Under the pieces are notes generated by a model, which was not told the origin of the DNA, made no database searches, and was given only the letters and a program-made list of their open reading frames with translations. A stretch of DNA of 64,000 bases from the NCBI GenBank assembly GCA_022072055.1, contig JAJVIK010000011.1, forward strand, positions 432,597 through 496,596, given 5' to 3'. The stretch comes from a bacterium. GTDB lineage: Bacteria > Hinthialibacterota > Hinthialibacteria > OLB16. Below, one piece after another: positions 4,578 to 33,566 of the stretch. How positions within the stretch are numbered: position 1 is the stretch's first letter; the number at the start of each line of letters is the position of its first letter. Position numbers and translations under genes: made by a program.

Positions 4578-5336
4578 ATGGGTCCGCGTGCTTTTTCCCT
4601 TGTCGAGATCCTTATCGTCCTATGTTTAGTGCTCATTCTGGCCTTGATCGCGATACCCTCGTTCTGGGAGGCCAAGGAGATATCCAATCTGAGCGTCGCG
4701 CGCGCGCGCATGGAGGCCATGGAGCAGGCGCTCGTATTGCACCAGACCGATTGGGGGTCGGTCCCGGCGGATTTCAACGACCCGTTTTCCTTGGTCAACC
4801 AATACCGAGTTCGGAATGGCGAGTGTTCGCAAGTCCCCGGTCTGAGCCCTCCGGGGAACGGCGGGCTGACATTCCTCGTCGACCGGACATCCCATTATGC
4901 GGTCAACATTCACTGCCCCCTGACGACTCCAGCGGCCTATATCACTCCTCCCGAGACGATTGACCCCTTCAGTGATGGGACTGTTCCATTTGGGTACGAT
5001 TCACGGGTCGCGGGGGCGGATACGATCCAGTACGGCGGCTTTTTCTCCGCCGGACCGGACAAGGTTGCCGGTGATTGGCTGCGCGGAAGTGGAACGGGCG
5101 GATATGTCCTGAACGGCCTGGCCTACAGCCCGACCAATGGGGTGCATAGTCGCGGGGAGTTTTGGGGCACGGTTTCAACATGCACCGCCGAACCGCCCAA
5201 CTGTTTTGTCGACCAGGATTTCCGTCCCCGAAAGGTTTACCCGGCTTGGGACACCGACATCAATGAGGATGGCATCACCGATAACAACGACCTCTTCTTG
5301 CTGCTGGCCGACTGGCGCAAGGTTTCGGGACCCTGA
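4578..5336 (+). CDS. Type IV prepilin-like / pseudopilin protein with dockerin-like C-terminus
   Basis: The 252-residue product starts MGPRA followed by FSLVEILIVLCLVLILALI, the prepilin cleavage site and hydrophobic helix of type II secretion/type IV pilus pseudopilins. The residue before the cleavage point is Ala rather than the usual Gly. ATG 4578 has GGAGG five bases upstream (4568-4572), which favours it over the in-frame GTG at 4560. The body is Gly/Pro/Thr-rich with several Cys. The end (DINEDGITDNNDLFLLLADW) resembles one dockerin-type calcium-binding repeat. No other pilus-assembly genes are nearby, as is common for the many scattered prepilins in PVC-type genomes. Confidence 0.8.
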   Translation: MGPRAFSLVEILIVLCLVLILALIAIPSFWEAKEISNLSVARARMEAMEQALVLHQTDWGSVPADFNDPFSLVNQYRVRNGECSQVPGLSPPGNGGLTFLVDRTSHYAVNIHCPLTTPAAYITPPETIDPFSDGTVPFGYDSRVAGADTIQYGGFFSAGPDKVAGDWLRGSGTGGYVLNGLAYSPTNGVHSRGEFWGTVSTCTAEPPNCFVDQDFRPRKVYPAWDTDINEDGITDNNDLFLLLADWRKVSGP

Positions 5337-5462
5337 CATCGAGCCTCCCGAACACCGTTAGTCGATTGCGCTCCCGCTACTCAGAGCCTGTCAAAGGACC
5401 TACCATCCGTGTCGGTCGCGGCCCCCTGGCCGTGTCCGCACATTTTTCCATTGAGGAATCCC

Positions 5463-6848
5463 ATGAATTCGCATGATCTGGTGGTCATCGGCGCGGGTCC
5501 GGGCGGGTACACCGCGGCCATTCGCGCCGCGCAGCTCGGACTCAATGTGGCGGTGATCGAGAAAGAGTCCGCGCTCGGCGGGACGTGCCTGCGCGTCGGG
5601 TGCATTCCGAGCAAGGCGCTGCTTGAGTCGAGCGAAAAATACTGGGAGGCGAGGGAATCGCTCCAGGCCCACGGGATCAAGATTACCAAGGCGGACCTCG
5701 ACCTGCCCACGATGCTCAAACGCAAGGAAGACATCGTGGGGGCTCTCACGCGCGGGGTGGCGGGGCTGTTCAAGAAGAACAAGATCACCCGATATGAGGG
5801 CCACGGGAGAATCGCGGGGCTTGGGAAAGTGGTGGCAGAGGGAAAAGAGGGGCCGGTTGAAATCGAGGCCAAGAACATCCTGATCGCCACGGGGAGCAAG
5901 TCGGCGGATTTGCCGGGCGTGGCTCCGGATGGGGATCGGATCGGAACCAGCACCGAGGCGCTCTCTTACGACAAAGTTCCCAAGCACCTGGTGGTCATCG
6001 GGGCCGGGTATATCGGCCTCGAACTCGGTTCGGTGTGGTTGCGGCTGGGGTCCAAGGTCACGGTCCTCGAGTACCTCGACCGAATCCTGCCGGGGATGGA
6101 CCTGGAGATCGCCAAGGAGGCCCACAAGGTCTTCCGTAAGCAGGGATTTGAGATCCGCCTCAAGTGCCGTGTCACCGGGGCGCGTTCGGACAAGAAGGGG
6201 GCCACTGTCGAGTGCGAAGGAACTGAACCGATCGTGTGTGATCGGGTGCTCCTCTCGGTCGGGCGAATTCCCAACACCGAGGGGCTGGGCCTGGAGTCGG
6301 TGGGAGTCCAGACCGACGCCAAGGGAAGAATCGCGGTGGACGGGCATTTTCAGACCAACGCGCCGGGAGTCTACGCCATTGGGGATGTGATCCCGGGACC
6401 GATGCTGGCGCACAAGGCGGAGGAGGAGGGGGTCGCCTGTGTGGAGCATCTGGTGACTGGGCACGGCCATGTGGACATGAATTGCATCCCCGGCGTGGTC
6501 TACACCCATCCGGAAATCGCCACGGTCGGCAAGAGCGAGGAGGAGCTCCAAGAGGGGGGGATCCCCTATCGCAAAGGGCTTTTCCCGTTCATGGCCAACG
6601 CGAGGGCGAGGTGCCTCGCGAACACCGAGGGGAAGGTGAAGGTCCTGGCGCACTCCCTAACGGACCGAGTGCTCGGGGTTCACATCATCGGGCCGCGCGC
6701 GGGGGACCTGATCGCCGAGGCCGCCGCCGCAATGGCCTTTGGCGCCAGCAGCGAGGATATCGCGAGGACTTGCCACGCCCACCCCACCCTTTCGGAGGCG
6801 CTCAAGGAAGCGGCCCTCGCGGTGGACAACCGACCCATCAATATCTGA
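5463..6848 (+). CDS. lpdA: Dihydrolipoyl dehydrogenase (E3)
   Basis: A 461-residue flavoprotein that reoxidises dihydrolipoamide with NAD+ for 2-oxoacid dehydrogenase or glycine-cleavage complexes. Visible motifs: the FAD-binding GAGPGGYTAAIRAAQLG near the N-terminus, the redox-active disulfide in GGTCLRVGCIPSKALL, an NAD-binding GAGYIGLELGSVW in the middle, the second FAD motif GVYAIGDV, and the C-terminal interface HAHPTLSEALKEA that carries the active-site His-Glu pair. ATG 5463 has GAGGAA just upstream; the reading frame extends back to 5409 but without signals. No E1, E2 or gcv genes are close, so the partner complex is encoded elsewhere. Confidence 0.95.
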   Translation: MNSHDLVVIGAGPGGYTAAIRAAQLGLNVAVIEKESALGGTCLRVGCIPSKALLESSEKYWEARESLQAHGIKITKADLDLPTMLKRKEDIVGALTRGVAGLFKKNKITRYEGHGRIAGLGKVVAEGKEGPVEIEAKNILIATGSKSADLPGVAPDGDRIGTSTEALSYDKVPKHLVVIGAGYIGLELGSVWLRLGSKVTVLEYLDRILPGMDLEIAKEAHKVFRKQGFEIRLKCRVTGARSDKKGATVECEGTEPIVCDRVLLSVGRIPNTEGLGLESVGVQTDAKGRIAVDGHFQTNAPGVYAIGDVIPGPMLAHKAEEEGVACVEHLVTGHGHVDMNCIPGVVYTHPEIATVGKSEEELQEGGIPYRKGLFPFMANARARCLANTEGKVKVLAHSLTDRVLGVHIIGPRAGDLIAEAAAAMAFGASSEDIARTCHAHPTLSEALKEAALAVDNRPINI

Positions 6849-6862
6849 ACCGAGGTGACATC

Positions 6863-9800
6863 TTGCCCCACCGCCCATTCACGCCTAACCGTGTCGTTGC
6901 GCTGCCGCTGATTTTATTCTGCAGCCTTACAGTCCTTTCGTCCGTTTGGGCGGAGGATCCACTCGCCCCGCCGGTCGCGAGATCCTCCGGGGTGGAGGGG
7001 TTGACCCGTTCCAAGGTCTTGAAGGAAACGGCGGATCCTTTTTCCCACTTGGAGGAGATTGACCCTTACTGGGTATCTCAATACGCCCCCAGACTTCTCA
7101 CTCCTCAGTGGATCGGGGAGCCGGGGGTGGATGCGGTCATCATCCTGAGCATTGATGACCTCGGCGATCCCGTGAAATACGAGCAGTATCTCCGGCCAAT
7201 CCTGGAGCGCCTCAAGAAGATCGATGGACGCGCCGCGCTCAGCATCACCGCGAACAGACTCGACTCGCAACACCCACAGCTCCAAAAATGGCTCGCGGAG
7301 GGGGTCAACCTCGAAACCCACACCACCAAGCACGCCTGCCCGATGCTGGCGGGCGGGGATCTGGCCGCGACCAAGGCGGACTACGACCAATGCGTAGACC
7401 TTCTCCATTCGGTTCCGAACAACCGGCCCGCGGCCTTCCGTGTACCGTGCTGCGACTCGATGAACGCCACCAGCCCGCGCTTCTTCTCAGAGGTGTTCGG
7501 CAAGACCACCCCGAACGGGAGGTTTGTCACCATCGACTCCTCGGTTTTCAATCTGTTCACCTCGAACGATCCGGCTTTCCCGCGCGACCTGGTGGTCGAT
7601 CCCAACGGGGTGGATCGGTTCCGCAAATACATTCCCTTCGACCGCTCCTTCGCCAATTGGGTCGAGGATTACCCGTACCCGTATGTGATCGGGAGGCTGT
7701 GTTGGGAGTTTCCGTGCGTGATGCCCTCCGATTGGGACGGCCAGAACCGCAACCAACCGTTCAGCCCGTTCACGGTCGCCGATCTGGAGGCCGCCATTGA
7801 CGCCACGGTCCTCAAGCAGGGGGTGTTCACCTTTGTGTTTCACCCGCACGGTTGGATTCGGAATGACCAAGTGGTGGAACTGATCGATCACGCCGAGGAG
7901 AAGTATGGCAAACAGGTCAAGTTCCTGAACTTCCGCGAGGCCCAAGACGCGCTCGACAAGAACCTCCTTCTGGAGCAACCGATTCGCGCCGCCGATGGGG
8001 GAGATAATGGAGTCCGCCTGGCGGACCTCAACGCGGATGGGTGCATGGATGTGGTGATTGGGAACGAGAACCTCCAGATGTCGCGAGTGTGGTCGCCGAG
8101 CGCCGGATCCTGGAGCGACGCCTCCTTCCCGACCCGTTTGGTCGAGACTAGCGCGGATGGGAAACGAATCGACGCCGGGGTCAAGTTCGGCGCCTTCAAG
8201 CGCGGCGAGGGGGCCTTCGCCCTGCTCGCCAACGAGCGCTCACGGGGGGCATGGAGACTCGAACGGGACTCGTGGCGTGAGGATCCCACGCTGCTCGCGG
8301 GTCTTGTGCTGAACGACCAACCGCTTGTGTTCACCCGGAATGGAGTCGATCAGGGGGTTCGCCTCCGCGACCTGGATGGAGATGGCGCGAGTGAGCTCCT
8401 GGTTGCGGGGCCGGGGGGAAGCGCGGTGTTTCGTTGGAATTCCGCCTCGCGATCCTGGAGTAAGCTCCCGTGGACGTTTCCCGATGGGGTCGCGTTTTCC
8501 ACTCCGGAGGGGGGTGACGCGGGGTTGCGGCTCTTCGATTTTGACGAAGACGGGCGCCAGGATGTTCTCTTCTCGAACGAGGAGCGTTACAGCCTTCACT
8601 TGTTCGACTCGATGGAAACCGGGTGGGCGCGCCCAGCTCTCGCGGGAATCCGATCCGCGAGCGCGGCCTCGGGACTGGAGCTTCCGCCCGTGGCGGTGAA
8701 CGGAACCAACAATGGCGCCTGGTTCCACTCCAGAACGCTCTGGCTCCAGAACGAACACACGGCGAAGCTGCCCGACAAGGTGGATCGACGCGCGTTCAAT
8801 GACCTGCTCGCCAAGGTCAAACCGCGCTCGCGCGAGGCGCGCGCCTCACTGCTTGCGATGCACCCGCGACCGGGATTCGAGGTCGAATTGGTCGCCGCCG
8901 AACCGCTGGTCATGGACCCCATCGCCTTTGACTGGGGCGCGGATGGGAGCCTGTGGGTGGTGGAGATGGCGGATTACCCGGAAGGGATCGACGGCGAGGG
9001 AAAACCGGGTGGGCGAATTCGCCGTCTGATCGACACGGATGGGGACGGCCGCTATGACACCGCGCACCTGTTTCTCGAAGGACTGTCATACCCGACCAGC
9101 GCCATGCCCTGGAGAGATGGAGTGTTGGTCACTTGCTCCCCGGACCTGTTTTACGCGGTGGACCGTGACGGCGATGGGCGCGCGGAGGAGCGCGAGGCGC
9201 TGTATACAGGTTTTGGAAGCTTGAACCCACAGCATCTGGTCAACGGCCTCACCTATGGTCTTGATGGGTGGGTTTATCTCGCCAACGGCGATAGCGGGGG
9301 GCAGATCCGGTCGGTGAAGACCGGCGAGGAGGTCAGCCTCCGTCACCGCGACCTCCGGGTCCATCCGGACAGTGGTCGCCTCGAAGCCATCGAGGGGCAG
9401 ACTCAGTTCAGCCGCGCGATGGACGATTGGGGCAACTGGTTCGGGTGCGCGAATCCGAGACCCATGTGGCACTATGTCCTCTCGGATCATTATCTTGAGC
9501 GTAATCCCCATGTCGCCGCGCCGAACTTTCGCGTGGATGTTTCCGTCGCGCCCGGACCCTCGCCTGTGTTTCCCACCAGTCGGACTCAGGAACGTTTCAA
9601 TGACCCTTGGATGGTGGATCGCTTCACCTCGGCCTGTGGGGTGATGGTTTATCGGGACACGCTCCTTGGACCCACGTATGTCGGGAACTCGTTTGTGTGC
9701 GAACCGGTGCACAACCTGGTCCATCGAGAGGTGATGAGCGCCTCAGGAGTCACCTTCACAAGCCGCCGCGCGCCGGATGAAATCGACTCGGAGTTCCTGT

Positions 9801-27568: not shown

Positions 27569-27642
27569 GGGTCACTAGCTCAATTGGTTAGAGCAGCGGA
27601 CTCTTAATCCGGTGGTTCGGGGTTCGAGTCCCCGGTGACCCA
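27569..27642 (+). tRNA. tRNA-Lys (CTT anticodon)
   Basis: 74 nt that fold as a cloverleaf: acceptor GGGTCAC/GTGACCC, D stem GCTC/GAGC, anticodon loop CTCTTAA (CTT, reading AAG), T arm CGGGG-TTCGAGT-CCCCG, discriminator A. The outermost anticodon-stem pair is G-G, the rest pair well. No CCA is encoded. An accessory island begins a few hundred bases downstream. Confidence 0.95.
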
Positions 27643-27875
27643 CTTGCATGAAACCCTTGATAACATTGGGTGAAACGCAAGTTTCCCGCTTCAACTTCAA
27701 GCCTTCGTTCCCTCCCCATTCCGGCCCGATTCCAACTTTGGTCTCGGCAACATCCTGCGCACCACCCACTCCGCTTCGGAGCATGCTTGAGAAGGTTCAT
27801 GCGGCTGCGTTGTTGGTTCACTCGGCCCGAAGCACCTCTCCCACGCTGGTGGAAACCGCGCGCCCCCAAAACCCA

Positions 27876-27903: not shown

Positions 27904-27955
27904 TACATGCTTTCGTGGTGGTGTGGTTGTGTCCAATCGAACCTTGGAGTTGGAC

Positions 27956-28885
27956 ATGGTCGAGAACCTCAGCCCTCATCCCCTCTCCATCCTCCCCTTC
28001 CCCGGGGCGCTCTCTTCGCTGCTCCACAAGCGGGTCTACACGCACGCGAACGCCGACGCCACGCCGGAAGCCTCGGCGGACTTCACCTACGCTTATGACG
28101 CGGTGGGGAATGTGTACTGTGTGTGGGACGGGGACGGCAACGAGGTTTACTATTTCGCGCAGGACGCTTTCGGGAACGAGTTGCCGGTGGACCTGCTCGG
28201 ACAAGACAGCTGGAGCACGGCCCGCGCCGCCGGGATCACGGAACACCAGACCGGCAATTGGCTCGACCCCTTCACGGGACTGTACTACTTCCAGGCCCGC
28301 TATTATGACCCGGTGGTGGGGAGGTTCACATCGCGGGACGTGGTACAACTCTCCACTCAACCGTATGCGATGTCCCACAGTCGTCCTACACGATGCGTTG
28401 ACGCGGCTGGGGAATGCAACTACGACATCCACTTTGAGTGGACAAATGCTTGGGCCTCAGGTACCCTATCGCGGTATGGTTGTGGTCCCAACACCGCGTT
28501 CGATATCGCATATCAGAACAATTTCACGGATATTATTTTTAATCCGCTCACAAGCCCCCAGCAGACGAGAAAGGACTACCACTGCTTTGACCACAACGAC
28601 CGCTCTGGCGTCTTTGACGGAGTTCCAGACCTTAATCAGATCAACGCCGATTTCCGAGATAAGCTCAGGGACGCCAAGAAATGCTGTGATACAACACTTT
28701 TGGGACAAGCTCTTCATTTTCGGCAGGATTGCTTCGTTCATGCAAGATGGACGTTTGGCCATCCGCCGCGCCGCGGGATTGATGAACAGTGCTCCTCGAC
28801 ATACCTTGAGGACATTATGCTTGTAACACTTGACGCACTAGAAGAATGGGGTACAAGATGCTGTTCCGGAAGATCCGACGAATAG
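27956..28885 (+). CDS. Orphan Rhs core with uncharacterised C-terminal tip (candidate toxin)
   Basis: 309 residues. Residues ~35-150 are the last part of an Rhs core: FTYAYDAVGNVYCVWDGDGN, QDAFGNEL, TGLYYFQARYYDPVVGRF, then a degenerate YAMSHSRPTRCVDAAGE that matches the usual conserved hinge before the variable tip. Residues ~155-309 are unrelated to Rhs, lower in GC and Cys-rich. They contain YHCFDHND (about 208) and ALHFRQDCFVHARWTFGH (about 251-268), a His/Asp pattern reminiscent of zinc-dependent phospholipase C/P1-nuclease folds (inference). A full Rhs protein is far longer; the N-terminal cage, secretion domain and most YD repeats are absent here. An ankyrin gene follows after 66 bp. 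Confidence 0.75.
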   Translation: MVENLSPHPLSILPFPGALSSLLHKRVYTHANADATPEASADFTYAYDAVGNVYCVWDGDGNEVYYFAQDAFGNELPVDLLGQDSWSTARAAGITEHQTGNWLDPFTGLYYFQARYYDPVVGRFTSRDVVQLSTQPYAMSHSRPTRCVDAAGECNYDIHFEWTNAWASGTLSRYGCGPNTAFDIAYQNNFTDIIFNPLTSPQQTRKDYHCFDHNDRSGVFDGVPDLNQINADFRDKLRDAKKCCDTTLLGQALHFRQDCFVHARWTFGHPPRRGIDEQCSSTYLEDIMLVTLDALEEWGTRCCSGRSDE

Positions 28886-28951
28886 TGCCTCGTCAAACAT
28901 GCCGCATGCGCCGACCATACTGTGTTGCGGCACAATGACGGAGTTCCATAA

Positions 28952-30187
28952 GTGGGCATGATGATCTACTTGAATTTGTGTATTTCTCTCTTCCTGTTCT
29001 TGGAGCTGATGGCCACTCATTCTTGCGGAGGAATTCCTTCGCAGCATCTGCGAGAGCTACAGGCTTCCAGTAAGTGTGACCTTCGGATTGCTGTGCGAAA
29101 CAAGGATGTATATCAGGCTCTTTCCTTGTTGCATGGCAGCACTGCTGTCAATCTTCCTGATGCGGACGGAATGACAGCCCTTCACTATGCTGCCAGGTCT
29201 GGCCGTGAGGATGTCGTGGTGGCCCTGATAGAATCAGGAGCAGATGTAGGAGCAACGAGGAGTGATGGAACAACGCCTCTACACTGCACTGCGGAGGAAG
29301 GACATATTGCGGTGATGGCGGTCCTTTTGGAAAGAGGCGCTCCGATTGATGCTGTGACAGATCAACAACTCTACCGATTTCATATTAACGCGAATATGCT
29401 TACACCCCTCGACCTCGCACTCGCGAATGGACACTCTTCGGCGGGGGCATTTCTGATAGAAAGAGGAGCCACGCACTCCCAGCTACAATCTGCTATGAGT
29501 GGCAATGAGGTTGCACTACAGAGCATACTGGCCAGTACTATGGTCATTGGCTATCCACCTCGGCTTATGGCCAAGGAACTCCTTTTTATGGCGGCCGATA
29601 CCAACAATGTCCGAGTTCTCTGCTACCTGTTGTCGCACGGGGCTGATCCCACATATGTCGACGAGAACGGGTGGTCAGCTTTACACTGGGCCGCGTTGCA
29701 AGAACATCCGATTCCGATCCACCTCCTCATCCAACAAGGCGCGCCGATTAACGGCAAGGCCGAAATGGCACACACACACACTCGGTTCACACCTCTCAAA
29801 CTGCTAACCATAGGACCAAGTCGAGTTCGGGATGAAGTGAGAGCCTGCGCCCGGGTGTTGATTGATGCTGGAGCAGAGTATGACTTGTTTGACCTTATAG
29901 TTGCAGATTACGTTGGACTTGCAAGAGAACTCCTGTGTGAAGACCCAGGTGTGGTGAATACGCCAGATGATTTCGGAGAAGACTATCCGATTCATTACAC
30001 GGCGTATGGTGGTTCTCCGGAAATGTTACGTCTCCTCCTGTCGAGTGGTGCGCGATGCGATGTCCAGGACCACAATGGTCAGACCGCGTATGATATCAGC
30101 CTCCGAACCAAGCGGAATGACCTTGCGAGTATTCTTGAGGACAAGTGTGGTTGCTCCCTCTTGAGGGAGAACAAATCGACCAAATGA
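28952..30187 (+). CDS. Exported ankyrin-repeat protein, likely immunity partner of the Rhs tip
   Basis: 411 residues from GTG 28952 (GGAG eight bases upstream); ATG 28958 or 28961 would also work. The N-terminus has a hydrophobic export signal (MIYLNLCISLFLFLELMA) and no cytoplasmic-type start. The rest is about nine ankyrin repeats, clearest at GMTALHYAARSGREDVVVAL, GTTPLHCTAEEGHIAVMAVL, GWSALHWAALQE and DYPIHYTAYGGSPEMLRLLL. GC content is about 50%, well below neighbouring genes. Ankyrin and Sel1-like repeat proteins are documented immunity proteins for polymorphic and type VI toxins, and an exported one would suit a toxin acting in the periplasm or on membrane lipids. The pairing is inferred from gene order. 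Confidence 0.75.
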   Translation: MGMMIYLNLCISLFLFLELMATHSCGGIPSQHLRELQASSKCDLRIAVRNKDVYQALSLLHGSTAVNLPDADGMTALHYAARSGREDVVVALIESGADVGATRSDGTTPLHCTAEEGHIAVMAVLLERGAPIDAVTDQQLYRFHINANMLTPLDLALANGHSSAGAFLIERGATHSQLQSAMSGNEVALQSILASTMVIGYPPRLMAKELLFMAADTNNVRVLCYLLSHGADPTYVDENGWSALHWAALQEHPIPIHLLIQQGAPINGKAEMAHTHTRFTPLKLLTIGPSRVRDEVRACARVLIDAGAEYDLFDLIVADYVGLARELLCEDPGVVNTPDDFGEDYPIHYTAYGGSPEMLRLLLSSGARCDVQDHNGQTAYDISLRTKRNDLASILEDKCGCSLLRENKSTK

Positions 30188-30239: not shown

Positions 30240-30662
30240 ATGCCTTACCTTATTGCTGAAGCATGGGGCTTCAATAGATCGGAGACCAAGCGCTACACCG
30301 GGGCCTCTTGGGCAGGGGTTTCCGGAGACATCCGGTTCGAGTACACTTATGACGCGAATGGGAATCTGACCGGGGTCAAGAAGGAGACCAAGAGCGGTTC
30401 GACCTGGAGCCAAATCGAGCGCTGGGCGTACACGTGGACGCCGAGGGATCAGATGAGGTACGCGACCAAGTACAACGCGGCGGACGCTTTCTCCGGGCGG
30501 GTGGAGTACAAGTACTGCCTGTCGTGCGATGGGGCGCTCTCGGAGCGGATCGAGTACAACCCCTCCTGGACCGTGGTCTCGCACCGGCGCTACGAGTACG
30601 ACGGCCTCAACCTGGTGCGTTTGGACGAGCGCTATGACGCGGACACGCCGCCGGACGGGGGA
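30240..30662 (+). pseudogene. Displaced Rhs fragment (YD repeats), truncated at both ends
   Basis: A segment of ~140 codons with internal Rhs/YD features: IRFEYTYDANGNLTGVKKET, QIERWAYTWTPRDQMRYATK, RRYEYDGLNLVRLDERYD. In an intact Rhs protein this lies upstream of the core that is encoded at 27956, yet here it is downstream. The frame begins around 30240 without a credible start signal and is cut off by the 3' end of the reverse gene at 30666. GC returns to ~60%. Just before it, frame +1 from 30184 reads GLTCLTLLLKHGASIDRR, possibly the end of a second ankyrin gene. Interpreted as debris from tandem Rhs units. Confidence 0.7.
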
Positions 30663-30665
30663 AGC

Positions 30666-33566
30666 TCACTTGAGCCTCAACCCCACCCGCTTCCCCTGCT
30701 CAATCGCCCGCCAATAGTCCCCCTCCACCGCGCGGTACATCGCCGGTAACCCCGCCGGACGAGAGTCCGGATCGACCTCGATCCAAACCTCCGGCTCCGG
30801 AATTGGCCCTTGCCCCTTGATGAGCGGCCCCATCTCGCAGATCACCCCGGTTACCGGGCGCTCGGTCCCATCCGGATTGAGTATTCCGTAGTCGCTCCTC
30901 TCGCCGGTCCGGAATCCCCCCGCATACCACCACACCACGACCCCATTCGAGCGGGATTCGAGCACCATCCTGAAGAACCGGCGATAGTATTCGGCGACCC
31001 TCTCGAGGTTGGCTAAGGGACACGACAGGGTGGTCATGTCCCACGCGCTCTGACCTATCTCCGCCCACATAACCGGGAGGTCGGGATTCACCGCGCGAGC
31101 GTAGTCCACCGTGAAACGACCGGGACGAACCCGATCCCACCCCCCGATCCGCCCGTAGCCCTCCGGTTCCCAGATGTCCACCGCGCGCCCCAGGCCGCGG
31201 AAATCGTAGGGAATCCAAGTGGGTCCGAGATAAGTGGGATCGCCGGTGACTGTCATCCGGAAGCTGACCGCGTGGTTCGGGTCCACGGATCGCACGAGGT
31301 CGCGGGCTCGGCTGTATTTCTCATGCAACAGATAGTTCAGGAAGCCCGCATAGTCCACCAACATGACGTCCCAGGGGCCACTCTCAAACCACTCGCGGCT
31401 CTGGGGGACAGGGAGCAGACCCTCGGCAAGCTCCACCCGATGGCTCCATGCCCTCAAAGCAGCCTCCAGGCTCCCATCCTTGGCATGGATCCAATCGTTC
31501 CACTCCGCGGTGTAGCGCGAGCGCTCCTTGTACCCATAGTGGAACGGCTCCCACGCAAGGTCATAGGCAAACACGGTCCGGTTGGAGGGGAGCCTCGAGT
31601 GCTCGATCATCTCCCGGATATCTTCCCACTCGAAATCCAAGGGGGTCCCGGGGCGCAACGAAAGGTTCACGCGCAAACCGTGTCTCTCGCACAGACGCAA
31701 CAAATCGATCAGGTTTCCGGCCGAGAGCGACTGGTGATACAGAAACACGCTCACCATGTTCATCCCCATGTCCGCGACCCGCGCGAGATCGCGCTCGACA
31801 ATCTCCGGGTCATAACCGCGCGGCCCGAGCCAATGCTCGAACGGCTCCCATTCCTCGCGCGCGATTCCCGAGGAGGGCATGTAATTGACCCCGAAGGGGA
31901 ACCAGGGCTTACCCTCTAGCAGAAAATCACCCTTTTCGATCCTGACCCAATCGAGGGTTGGGTCCGGCTCCCAGAGGTGGAAATCGTGCTCGATGCGGTC
32001 GAGCGCCCGATCCGCTCGCAGGAGTGTCAGGCGGGCGCGATAGGTCTTGCCCTTCTCGAAGGGGATCCCATCGAGGATCTGCTCATCCCCATGCTCATAC
32101 AGCGGCGAACCGGAATCCTCCCAGAGGACCTTCCCTGTTTCCGTTTCGGTCACTTTCCATTGGATCGAAAGCCCCTCCCTTGCGGCCTCGGAGGCCACGG
32201 TCTCTTCGCCGATCGAGGGGATGTGGTCCGGGAAGTAAGTGAACTTCGAGGTCCCGCCCTCCCACAGGAAACACTCCTCGCGCAACCTCATGGCCAGCTC
32301 CACGATGAAGGACCGGATCGAGTCTTGGCGATAGAACAAAGGGTCCCGGATGGCGAAGGCCGCCCACATCCGTTCCAGGTTGGGGGTGAACCGGAGCGCA
32401 GCGATGGCCCCGCGATAGTCCCCTTGGGGGGAGAGCGCTTCCAGGAGTGGAATCCAGCGATGGGTCCGTTCCTTTCCGTATCCGCTGGAAAGAGGACGGG
32501 GATGGAGGGCTTCCACCGAGGAAGGGAGTCGCGCCTCGGTCGCCGCGGGGGTCGGAACTAACGCCTGCTTGGGCGAGACGCGAATCTCTCCCACAGCGGC
32601 GCAGGGGTAGGCGTGATAGGAGGGGAACAACATCTCCCTCGGTCTGAAATTCACCTCCCAGCCGATGTCGAGGCGGTCTCTTGCCCGGCAAGTCCCGATA
32701 TCGGTGATCCAGAACTCATGGTCTCCGGCAAGGCCGGGGGTGTGGGAAAGGGCCAGCCCGCAACTGAAGCGCTTGGCGCGGGAAAGGGAAAGCTCGGTTC
32801 CGGCGCGGGATGGAACGCTCTCCCAGAACGCAAACTCCTTCTGTGGGAGCACATGGCGCTTCCATTCGGCGGTCAAGGGAACGGTCGCCATCCAGCGCGA
32901 GCCATCCTGTTCCTCCCACTCGAAGAGCAGACGGGTGGTGTTGGGTCCCCCCTTGGCCCAGAAACAGGTGAAACGGTGGTCCTCCGCCACCGGGGTTTTG
33001 AGGTTCGGACTGTAGAGCGTGTCCCACCCATCATGGTCCTTGATGATCCGATGCAGACAGTGACCGCGAGTCGGATCCACAACAACCTCCGAAACACTTG
33101 GGTGGCTGGGGTTGTTGCTTGTCCGATTCCAGAGGGAAAGGTCCCCTGAGGAGAAGTCGGACAGGAGATAGTCGAGGGGGATCTTGGCAAGTTCCTCCTC
33201 ATAGGCTTCCCGGATGGTCCATTTTCCATCCAGGATCTGAACCGGCTTGCGGAAAAGAGTCCCGCCGAGAGCGATCAAGCGCCCGCCGCCCTCCAAATAG
33301 GCTTCCAGCGGTTTGGCGAAGGGGAGAGGGAGAACCCCGGCATCCGTGAGGATGAGCAGGTTCTCTCGCGCGGGGGTCGGAAAGCCGGGTGAGAGCAGCT
33401 CGGTCGGCCGAATCGGGGTGACCGATTGTCCGCGGTCGGTGAAAGCGGCAGCCAGTTCTTGTCCGACCTCCGGGCTTGCGCCGGGGAGGTCGTTGACAAG
33501 GACCCAAGTCTCCGCGTGAGCGGACGCGTAGACAAGGAACAGAGATAGCGTGAGGAAGGATCGCAT
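30666..33566 (-). CDS. Secreted GH5-like glycoside hydrolase
   Basis: 966 residues with a signal peptide (MRSFLTLSLFLVYASAHA). An N-terminal ThuA/glutamine-amidotransferase-like stretch (LLILTDAGVLPLPF, GGGRLIALGG) is followed by beta-rich modules and a TIM barrel from about residue 545: DFLLEGKPWFPFGVNYMP, DLARVADMGMNMVSVFLYHQ, FAYDLAWEPF near 674 (acid/base position after strand 4) and LPVMWAEIGQSAWD near 832 (nucleophile-type Glu after strand 7). This is the clan GH-A layout of GH5 and related enzymes. Substrate not predictable. The 3' end runs into Rhs remnants of the island. Confidence 0.75.
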   Translation of the reverse strand: MRSFLTLSLFLVYASAHAETWVLVNDLPGASPEVGQELAAAFTDRGQSVTPIRPTELLSPGFPTPARENLLILTDAGVLPLPFAKPLEAYLEGGGRLIALGGTLFRKPVQILDGKWTIREAYEEELAKIPLDYLLSDFSSGDLSLWNRTSNNPSHPSVSEVVVDPTRGHCLHRIIKDHDGWDTLYSPNLKTPVAEDHRFTCFWAKGGPNTTRLLFEWEEQDGSRWMATVPLTAEWKRHVLPQKEFAFWESVPSRAGTELSLSRAKRFSCGLALSHTPGLAGDHEFWITDIGTCRARDRLDIGWEVNFRPREMLFPSYHAYPCAAVGEIRVSPKQALVPTPAATEARLPSSVEALHPRPLSSGYGKERTHRWIPLLEALSPQGDYRGAIAALRFTPNLERMWAAFAIRDPLFYRQDSIRSFIVELAMRLREECFLWEGGTSKFTYFPDHIPSIGEETVASEAAREGLSIQWKVTETETGKVLWEDSGSPLYEHGDEQILDGIPFEKGKTYRARLTLLRADRALDRIEHDFHLWEPDPTLDWVRIEKGDFLLEGKPWFPFGVNYMPSSGIAREEWEPFEHWLGPRGYDPEIVERDLARVADMGMNMVSVFLYHQSLSAGNLIDLLRLCERHGLRVNLSLRPGTPLDFEWEDIREMIEHSRLPSNRTVFAYDLAWEPFHYGYKERSRYTAEWNDWIHAKDGSLEAALRAWSHRVELAEGLLPVPQSREWFESGPWDVMLVDYAGFLNYLLHEKYSRARDLVRSVDPNHAVSFRMTVTGDPTYLGPTWIPYDFRGLGRAVDIWEPEGYGRIGGWDRVRPGRFTVDYARAVNPDLPVMWAEIGQSAWDMTTLSCPLANLERVAEYYRRFFRMVLESRSNGVVVWWYAGGFRTGERSDYGILNPDGTERPVTGVICEMGPLIKGQGPIPEPEVWIEVDPDSRPAGLPAMYRAVEGDYWRAIEQGKRVGLRLK

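What the first reader, a model, noticed from the sequence alone, without database searches (positions are those of the whole stretch)
28410..30187. Candidate new Rhs toxin tip with an exported ankyrin immunity partner
The Rhs hinge (YAMSHSRPTRCVDAAGE) is followed by ~155 residues unrelated to Rhs. They carry YHCFDHND and ALHFRQDCFVHARWTFGH, whose His/Asp spacing recalls zinc phospholipase C/P1-nuclease folds. An ankyrin protein with an export signal follows 66 bp later. Gene order tip-then-immunity is standard for polymorphic toxins. An exported immunity protein would fit a lipid- or periplasm-directed toxin. Domain identity is my inference.
Basis: partly seen in the sequence, partly recalled or inferred. 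Interest (0 to 1): 0.8.

Follow-up and report, generated by a model that had tools for sequence, protein, structure and literature searches.

The report
Orphan Rhs toxin tip, exported ankyrin antidote
A stranded fragment of a bacterial Rhs "poison-arrow" gene ends in a small helical domain carrying the metal-binding residues of a phospholipase C / HET-C-like enzyme family, followed by an ankyrin protein that probably leaves the cytoplasm and protects the maker; it looks like an ordinary weapon-and-antidote pair with an unusual pairing of parts, and as it stands it cannot be fired on its own.

Summary
An Rhs C-terminal core ends at 28418, a 155-residue tip follows, and an ankyrin gene starts 66 bp after it. 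The fold guess is well supported. No library model matches the tip above its cut-off, but 13 relatives (9 of them Rhs tips) align over its whole length. Seven ligand-type residues (H10, D43, H60, H105, D109, H113, H120) and G101 are the only invariant columns. With the 16-residue search motif masked the match still beats 5000 of 5000 shuffles. AlphaFold2 goes from pLDDT 41 (alone) to 78 (with relatives): all-helical. It is a divergent member of the DUF6765/VWA7_N/Het-C/Zn-PLC assemblage. In 10 of 10 relative loci the next gene encodes a membrane or exported protein, which supports an envelope target; an exported ankyrin antidote to a periplasmic phospholipase is already known (Tle6/Tli6).

Only ~135 residues of Rhs core precede the tip, and another core fragment follows the ankyrin gene. 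The genome holds about a dozen such orphans, no intact Rhs gene of this family, and no detected type VI sheath gene. Lipase versus nuclease activity, and the toxin-ankyrin interface, are untested.

The parts
28001..28418 (+). Rhs C-terminal core fragment (core2) with hinge; left edge of Rhs similarity
   Evidence: TIGR03696 E 8e-13; blastn to two other copies in the genome starts at 28001 in both
27923..28885 (+). ORF of core2 + tip (GTG start is only the first possible one; no Rhs N-terminal part)
28419..28882 (+). tip: HET-C/DUF6765/Zn-PLC-like all-helical domain, 155 aa, 9 Cys in the 160-aa stretch analysed
   Evidence: alignment A3, leave-one-out HMM 41.4 bits, AF2 pLDDT 78.1, pTM 0.77
28430..28432 (+). 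putative metal ligand H10 (tip numbering of P0003)
   Evidence: invariant in A3
28529..28531 (+). putative metal ligand D43
   Evidence: invariant in A3
28580..28582 (+). putative metal ligand H60 (YHC; relatives have HF)
   Evidence: invariant in A3; the four MAFFT modes agree
28715..28741 (+). HxxxDxxxH: H105, D109, H113
   Evidence: invariant in A3; same motif as Tox-HET-C in PMC3482391
28760..28762 (+). putative ligand H120 (FGHP)
   Evidence: invariant in A3; column placement varies between MAFFT modes
28952..30187 (+). ankyrin-repeat protein, 411 aa, candidate immunity protein; hydrophobic N-terminus (residues 3-17)
   Evidence: Ank_2 5.7e-43; hydropathy; GGAG 8 nt before GTG
30285..30659 (+). 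second Rhs core fragment (core1) with no tip after it; right edge of Rhs similarity
   Evidence: 92.8-95.7% DNA identity to two copies in L030, both ending at 30659
27569..27643 (+). tRNA-Lys(CTT) left of the cassette; not shown to be an attachment site

Best explanation
This is an orphan Rhs-CT/immunity cassette. The tip (28419-28882) is a small all-helical, probably zinc-dependent hydrolase of the DUF6765/Het-C/Zn-PLC assemblage, most likely acting on membrane phospholipids from the periplasmic side. The ankyrin protein (28952-30187) is most likely its immunity protein, exported so that it can cap the incoming toxin outside the inner membrane. As it stands the tip has no Rhs shell and no good start, so it is silent until recombination in the shared core joins it to a full-length Rhs gene. 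Shown here: Rhs core end, tip homology and conserved ligand set, predicted helical fold, orphan architecture, membrane/exported neighbours in relatives. Inferred: metal binding, lipase rather than nuclease activity, toxicity, neutralisation by the ankyrin protein, reactivation by recombination.
For: Only H10, D43, H60, G101, H105, D109, H113 and H120 are invariant in 14 sequences. With the 16-residue search motif masked the tip scores 13.4 bits against the model of the other 13, reached by 0 of 5000 shuffles; six other tips of the same genome score -3 to 1. The N-terminal 64 residues alone, which played no part in the pattern search, score 14.8 bits, 0 of 5000. One relative Rhs tip passes Pfam DUF6765 (44.3 v 26.6 bits) and another passes VWA7_N (27.9 v 27.5). 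AF2 pLDDT rises from 40.6 alone to 78.1 with the alignment. In 10 of 10 relative loci the next gene, between 19 bp of overlap and 89 bp away, encodes a membrane or signal-bearing protein. Ankyrin lipoprotein immunity to a periplasmic phospholipase is proven for Tle6/Tli6 (PMC11470151). Orphan rhs-CT/immunity pairs that need recombination are proven in Salmonella (PMC3967940).
Against: Foldseek found no significant PDB or viral match; a Bacillus PC-PLC entry is only rank 28 at E 9.8. Direct Pfam evidence for the tip is sub-threshold (Zn_dep_PLPC 13.2 v 26.8 bits). The tip's second His motif is HxxD, not the HxD given for Tox-HET-C. The ankyrin signal lacks a positive n-region and lipobox. Hydrophobic segments are common in this window too (18 of 32 large ORFs), so the neighbour pattern is suggestive, not proof. 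No interface could be predicted. The tip itself has no relative in the 14 genomes of its class, so selection on it cannot be measured.
Confidence: 0.6

Rival explanations
1. Same fold, but a nuclease (S1-P1-like) or other phosphoesterase; the ankyrin protein acts in the cytoplasm and its N-terminus is not a working signal.
For: The superfamily holds both activities (PMC3482391); the signal is weak; cytosolic Imm-ank partners of nuclease toxins are listed in the same paper.
Against: All 10 relative loci have membrane or exported partners, which would be useless against a cytosolic nuclease; most partners of other orphan tips in this genome also carry export or membrane signals.
Confidence: 0.2
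2. Decaying debris: the cassette is a dead remnant of an Rhs array with no present function.
For: Rhs core cut on both sides and in permuted order (core2-tip-ankyrin-core1); no promoter above background; no full-length gene of this core family and no detected VipB/TssC in the assembly.
Against: Tip and ankyrin frames are intact over 320 and 411 codons with all ligands kept; about a dozen similar orphans, most with intact-looking tips and partners; orphan modules are known to be reactivated by recombination.
Confidence: 0.3
3. The ankyrin protein is not the antidote but an unrelated or separately acting exported protein that travels with the cassette.
For: No interaction evidence; the relatives' partners are unrelated to it (small membrane proteins, propeller, lipoprotein).
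Against: Position directly after the tip, between two Rhs core fragments; immunity families swap often in polymorphic toxins and ankyrin immunity is documented.
Confidence: 0.15

Closest known systems
Tox-HET-C of polymorphic toxin systems (Zhang et al. 2012, PMC3482391)
   Same: Small all-alpha C-terminal toxin domain; HxxxDxxxH plus further His/Asp; predicted PLC/P1-like metal site.
   Different: HxxD instead of HxD in the second His motif; the paper lists no immunity partner, here there is a candidate one; no library Het-C model matches this tip.
DUF6765 (Pfam PF20551)
   Same: N-terminal D[FIV]H..xxT..lA and IA..xx(x)vD motifs, xHF, HxxxDxxxH, GH; one relative Rhs tip (L096:5206-5877) is a DUF6765 hit over the cut-off.
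   Different: Free-standing DUF6765-like proteins found here are about 270-360 aa (L179, L181, L183, L188, L190); this is a shortened 155-aa, Cys-rich tip and itself falls below detection by that model.
Tle6/Tli6 of Enterobacter cloacae (PMC11470151, PMC10294624)
   Same: Envelope phospholipase toxin followed by an exported ankyrin-repeat immunity protein.
   Different: Tle6 is a serine phospholipase A1 delivered by T6SS; here the predicted enzyme is a metal hydrolase on an Rhs fragment, no T6SS sheath gene was found, and no lipobox is seen.
Orphan rhs-CT/rhsI modules (Salmonella LT2, PMC3967940)
   Same: Fragmentary core + toxin tip + immunity gene without start or export part.
   Different: Scattered over the genome with no main rhs gene of the same core family found, rather than lined up behind one.

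Membership tests
Rhs C-terminal toxin (tip) module | Rhs_assc_core end followed by a non-Rhs C-terminal domain | tested here: met
   TIGR03696 over cut-off, then 155 aa without Rhs similarity
Rhs toxin (deliverable) | Full Rhs repeat shell and N-terminal export or spike domain | tested here: not met
   Rhs similarity starts at 28001; longest frame of this core family in the genome is 673 aa
T6SS effector | T6SS sheath gene VipB/TssC in the genome | tested here: not met
   No PF05943 hit in a 96.6% complete genome; control rings in E. coli
Tox-HET-C | HxxxDxxxH | tested here: met
   H105, D109, H113, invariant
Tox-HET-C | All-alpha fold | tested here: met
   AF2 pLDDT 78, six helices, no strands; prediction only
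Tox-HET-C | Upstream H and [DE] | tested here: met
   H10 and D43 invariant
Tox-HET-C | HxD motif | tested here: not met
   HCFD (HxxD) in this tip; HFD in relatives L064, L079, L096a
Tox-HET-C | Nxx[DE] and [ST]G | tested here: inconclusive
   No Nxx[DE] after the HxxxDxxxH motif; an SG occurs at the C-terminus but cannot be placed without the published alignment
DUF6765 (PF20551) | Score over Pfam cut-off | tested here: not met
   No hit for the tip at E <= 10; relative L096b 44.3 v 26.6 bits
Zn_dep_PLPC (PF00882) | Score over Pfam cut-off | tested here: not met
   13.2 v 26.8 bits, E 0.089
Zn-PLC / S1-P1 fold | Structural match to a solved member | tested here: inconclusive
   No significant Foldseek match; PC-PLC 2ffz at E 9.8
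Ankyrin immunity (Imm-ank / Tli6-like) | Ankyrin repeats, gene directly after the toxin | tested here: met
   Ank_2 5.7e-43, 66 bp gap
Tli6-like | Export signal (lipoprotein type) | tested here: inconclusive
   Hydrophobic N-terminus, no n-region charge, no lipobox
Ankyrin immunity (Imm-ank / Tli6-like) | Binds and neutralises the toxin | not testable with these tools
   No complex prediction or assay available

The most novel reading that the evidence does not exclude
In this lineage, in which no T6SS sheath gene was found, Rhs tips are stored as a scattered library of orphan cassettes aimed at the cell envelope: Cys-rich tips, each paired with an exported or membrane-anchored repeat protein (ankyrin, WD40/propeller, LRR), with the PLC/HET-C-like tip and ankyrin antidote of this window as one card of the set.
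Probability: 0.25. Interest if true: 0.6.

Novelty: new variant of a known kind. Interest (0 to 1): 0.42.

Why it matters
It ties an undescribed Rhs tip subfamily, which no library model detects, to the HET-C/PLC-type metal-hydrolase assemblage, and supplies candidate immunity proteins for a toxin class (Tox-HET-C) for which the 2012 survey lists none. It predicts that these toxins work at the envelope, which a simple periplasm-versus-cytoplasm toxicity test with and without the ankyrin protein can check.

Tried and rejected
Single-sequence searches for the tip found no relative: genome contigs, viral contigs, plasmids, 98 relatives, class, PDB sequences. The single-sequence AF2 model was useless (pLDDT 40.6). 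A stricter motif scan of viral contigs was empty. Foldseek against PDB and BFVD gave nothing significant, so the fold claim rests on sequence and the AF2 model, not on a structural match. The weak 1,8-cineole synthase hit (17) was judged chance. The relatives were fetched with a pattern from the tip's own motif, so the motif's agreement is circular; it was therefore masked in the test. With free-standing DUF6765-like proteins alone the link is weak (masked 4.6 bits, 9 of 5000 shuffles). The idea that the tRNA-Lys at 27569 is an attachment site was dropped: no flanking repeat was found. T6SS delivery was rejected.

Full report
Observation. ORF 27923-28885 has an Rhs core end (TIGR03696, E 8e-13), the hinge YAMSHSRPTRCVDAAGE, then 155 residues without Rhs similarity. 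The ankyrin ORF begins 66 bp later at GTG 28952 with GGAG 8 nt upstream. The tip and ankyrin region is lower in G+C (52-55%) than the rest of the window (about 61%), as expected for an acquired cassette.

The cassette is an orphan. DNA similarity to other Rhs cores of the genome starts at 28001 and the fragment behind the ankyrin gene ends at 30659, both for two copies in L030. In intact order the piece that follows the ankyrin gene (core1) precedes the piece before the tip (core2), so the cassette reads core2-tip-ankyrin-core1: a slice out of a tandem array, or a permuted insertion. The genome has 11 Rhs core ends and 16 core1 fragments. None of this core family exceeds a 673-aa frame. One 2360-aa Rhs protein exists at C1:595 kb, but its core end is of another type, with an alpha/beta-hydrolase-like tip (that reading of the tip is by eye). 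No VipB/TssC was found. In Salmonella, orphan rhs-CT modules lack start and export signals and are activated by recombination with the main rhs gene (PMC3967940). The same is the simplest reading here, but no main gene of this family is in the assembly; three contigs break at or near Rhs cores, so one may be missing.

What the tip is. Direct library searches gave only Zn_dep_PLPC at E 0.089. A degenerate DNA pattern for G..LH..QD.[FY].H..W, the tip's own motif, returned 118 stretches in genome contigs. Most encode Het-C/VWA7-like proteins, but six are Rhs tips from a planctomycete, Acidobacteria, Nitrospira, Geobacteraceae, Coriobacteriia and an unnamed bacterium. Profile searches and a second scan added Rhs tips L096b (L096:5206-5877), L164, L167 and L184 and free-standing DUF6765-like proteins. 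One relative tip passes Pfam DUF6765 and another passes VWA7_N.

Test against chance. Because the pattern came from the tip, agreement in the motif is circular. With those 16 residues masked, the tip scores 13.4 bits against a model of the 13 others (maximum of 5000 shuffles 8.3; none reaches it). The N-terminal 64 residues alone score 14.8 bits (none of 5000). Six other tips of the same genome score -3 to 1. In the 14-row alignment A3 the invariant columns are H10, D43, H60, G101, H105, D109, H113 and H120. The four MAFFT modes agree on the first His, the Asp, the second His and HxxxDxxxH; H120 is less stable. This is the set expected of the PLC/P1/Het-C metal site (H, D/E, H, HxxxDxxxH) as described in PMC3482391.

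Structure. Without relatives AF2 gives pLDDT 40.6; with A3, 78.1 and pTM 0.77, 75 residues at 90 or more, six helices and no strands; H10 and D43 lie near helix ends, H105 and D109 in the 97-112 helix. Foldseek found no significant solved or viral match. The domain is shorter than known phospholipases C, so this is inconclusive rather than contrary.

Partner and target. In all ten relative loci examined the next gene, between 19 bp of overlap and 89 bp away, encodes a membrane protein (L063, L064, L071, L079, both tips of L096, L100, L184), a signal-bearing propeller-like protein (L164) or a lipoprotein-like one (L167). L071 and L079 have related partners, so the ten are not fully independent. 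Background hydrophobicity is high (18 of 32 large ORFs of the window), so this is support, not proof. In the home genome most other orphan tips also precede an exported or membrane-anchored repeat protein: WD40/propeller-like in L030, L034, L035, L037, LRR in L038, a lipoprotein-like protein in L033; two partners (L036, L039) show no signal. The ankyrin N-terminus is hydrophobic but lacks a charged n-region and lipobox. The logic 'exported ankyrin antidote for an envelope lipase' is proven elsewhere: E. cloacae Tli6 is an ankyrin lipoprotein that neutralises the phospholipase Tle6 in the periplasm (PMC11470151, PMC10294624).

Conclusion. I commit to: metal hydrolase of the DUF6765/Het-C/PLC assemblage (about 0.8), a toxin-immunity pair (about 0.7), lipid rather than nucleic-acid target (about 0.45-0.5). 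Literature searches found no paper naming DUF6765 and only the 2012 survey joining Rhs, immunity and zinc-dependent phospholipase C; only open papers in PubMed Central were searched.

Noticed in passing
L033:7772-9516 (G000:C2): Another orphan Rhs tip of the same genome is a serum amyloid A (PF00277) family domain, 43.9 v 30.8 bits, followed by a lipoprotein-like partner (FFSC).
   Followed up: partly
L034:6233-8679, L037:6183-8476 (G000:C7, C6): Two related Cys-rich tips (CRHKxHCYACC) at different places, each followed by a WD40-type protein with a signal or anchor.
   Followed up: partly
L038:7411-10022 (G000:C3): Orphan tip with HEFGHCCGCTHDD (zincin-like) followed by an LRR protein with a signal-like N-terminus.
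   Followed up: no
L030, reverse strand 5126-8104 (G000:C10); L035:3-1764 (G000:C7): Two tips with GH[EQ]W[LV][QE]W motifs, each followed by a propeller-like protein with signal or anchor; no Pfam hit for the one tip and one partner tested.
   Followed up: partly
L035 start, L031 end, L040 end (G000:C7:1, C10:215288, C8:288626): Contigs break at or near Rhs cores, so an intact main rhs gene may be missing from the assembly.
   Followed up: no
L096:2-2161 and 5206-5877: One Geobacteraceae contig carries two different HET-C/DUF6765-type Rhs tips, each followed by a small membrane protein.
   Followed up: partly
window 30666-33566 (-): A 966-aa protein resembling a large secreted glycoside hydrolase ends directly beside the cassette's right edge (stop codon about 7 bp from the last Rhs base).
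   Followed up: no
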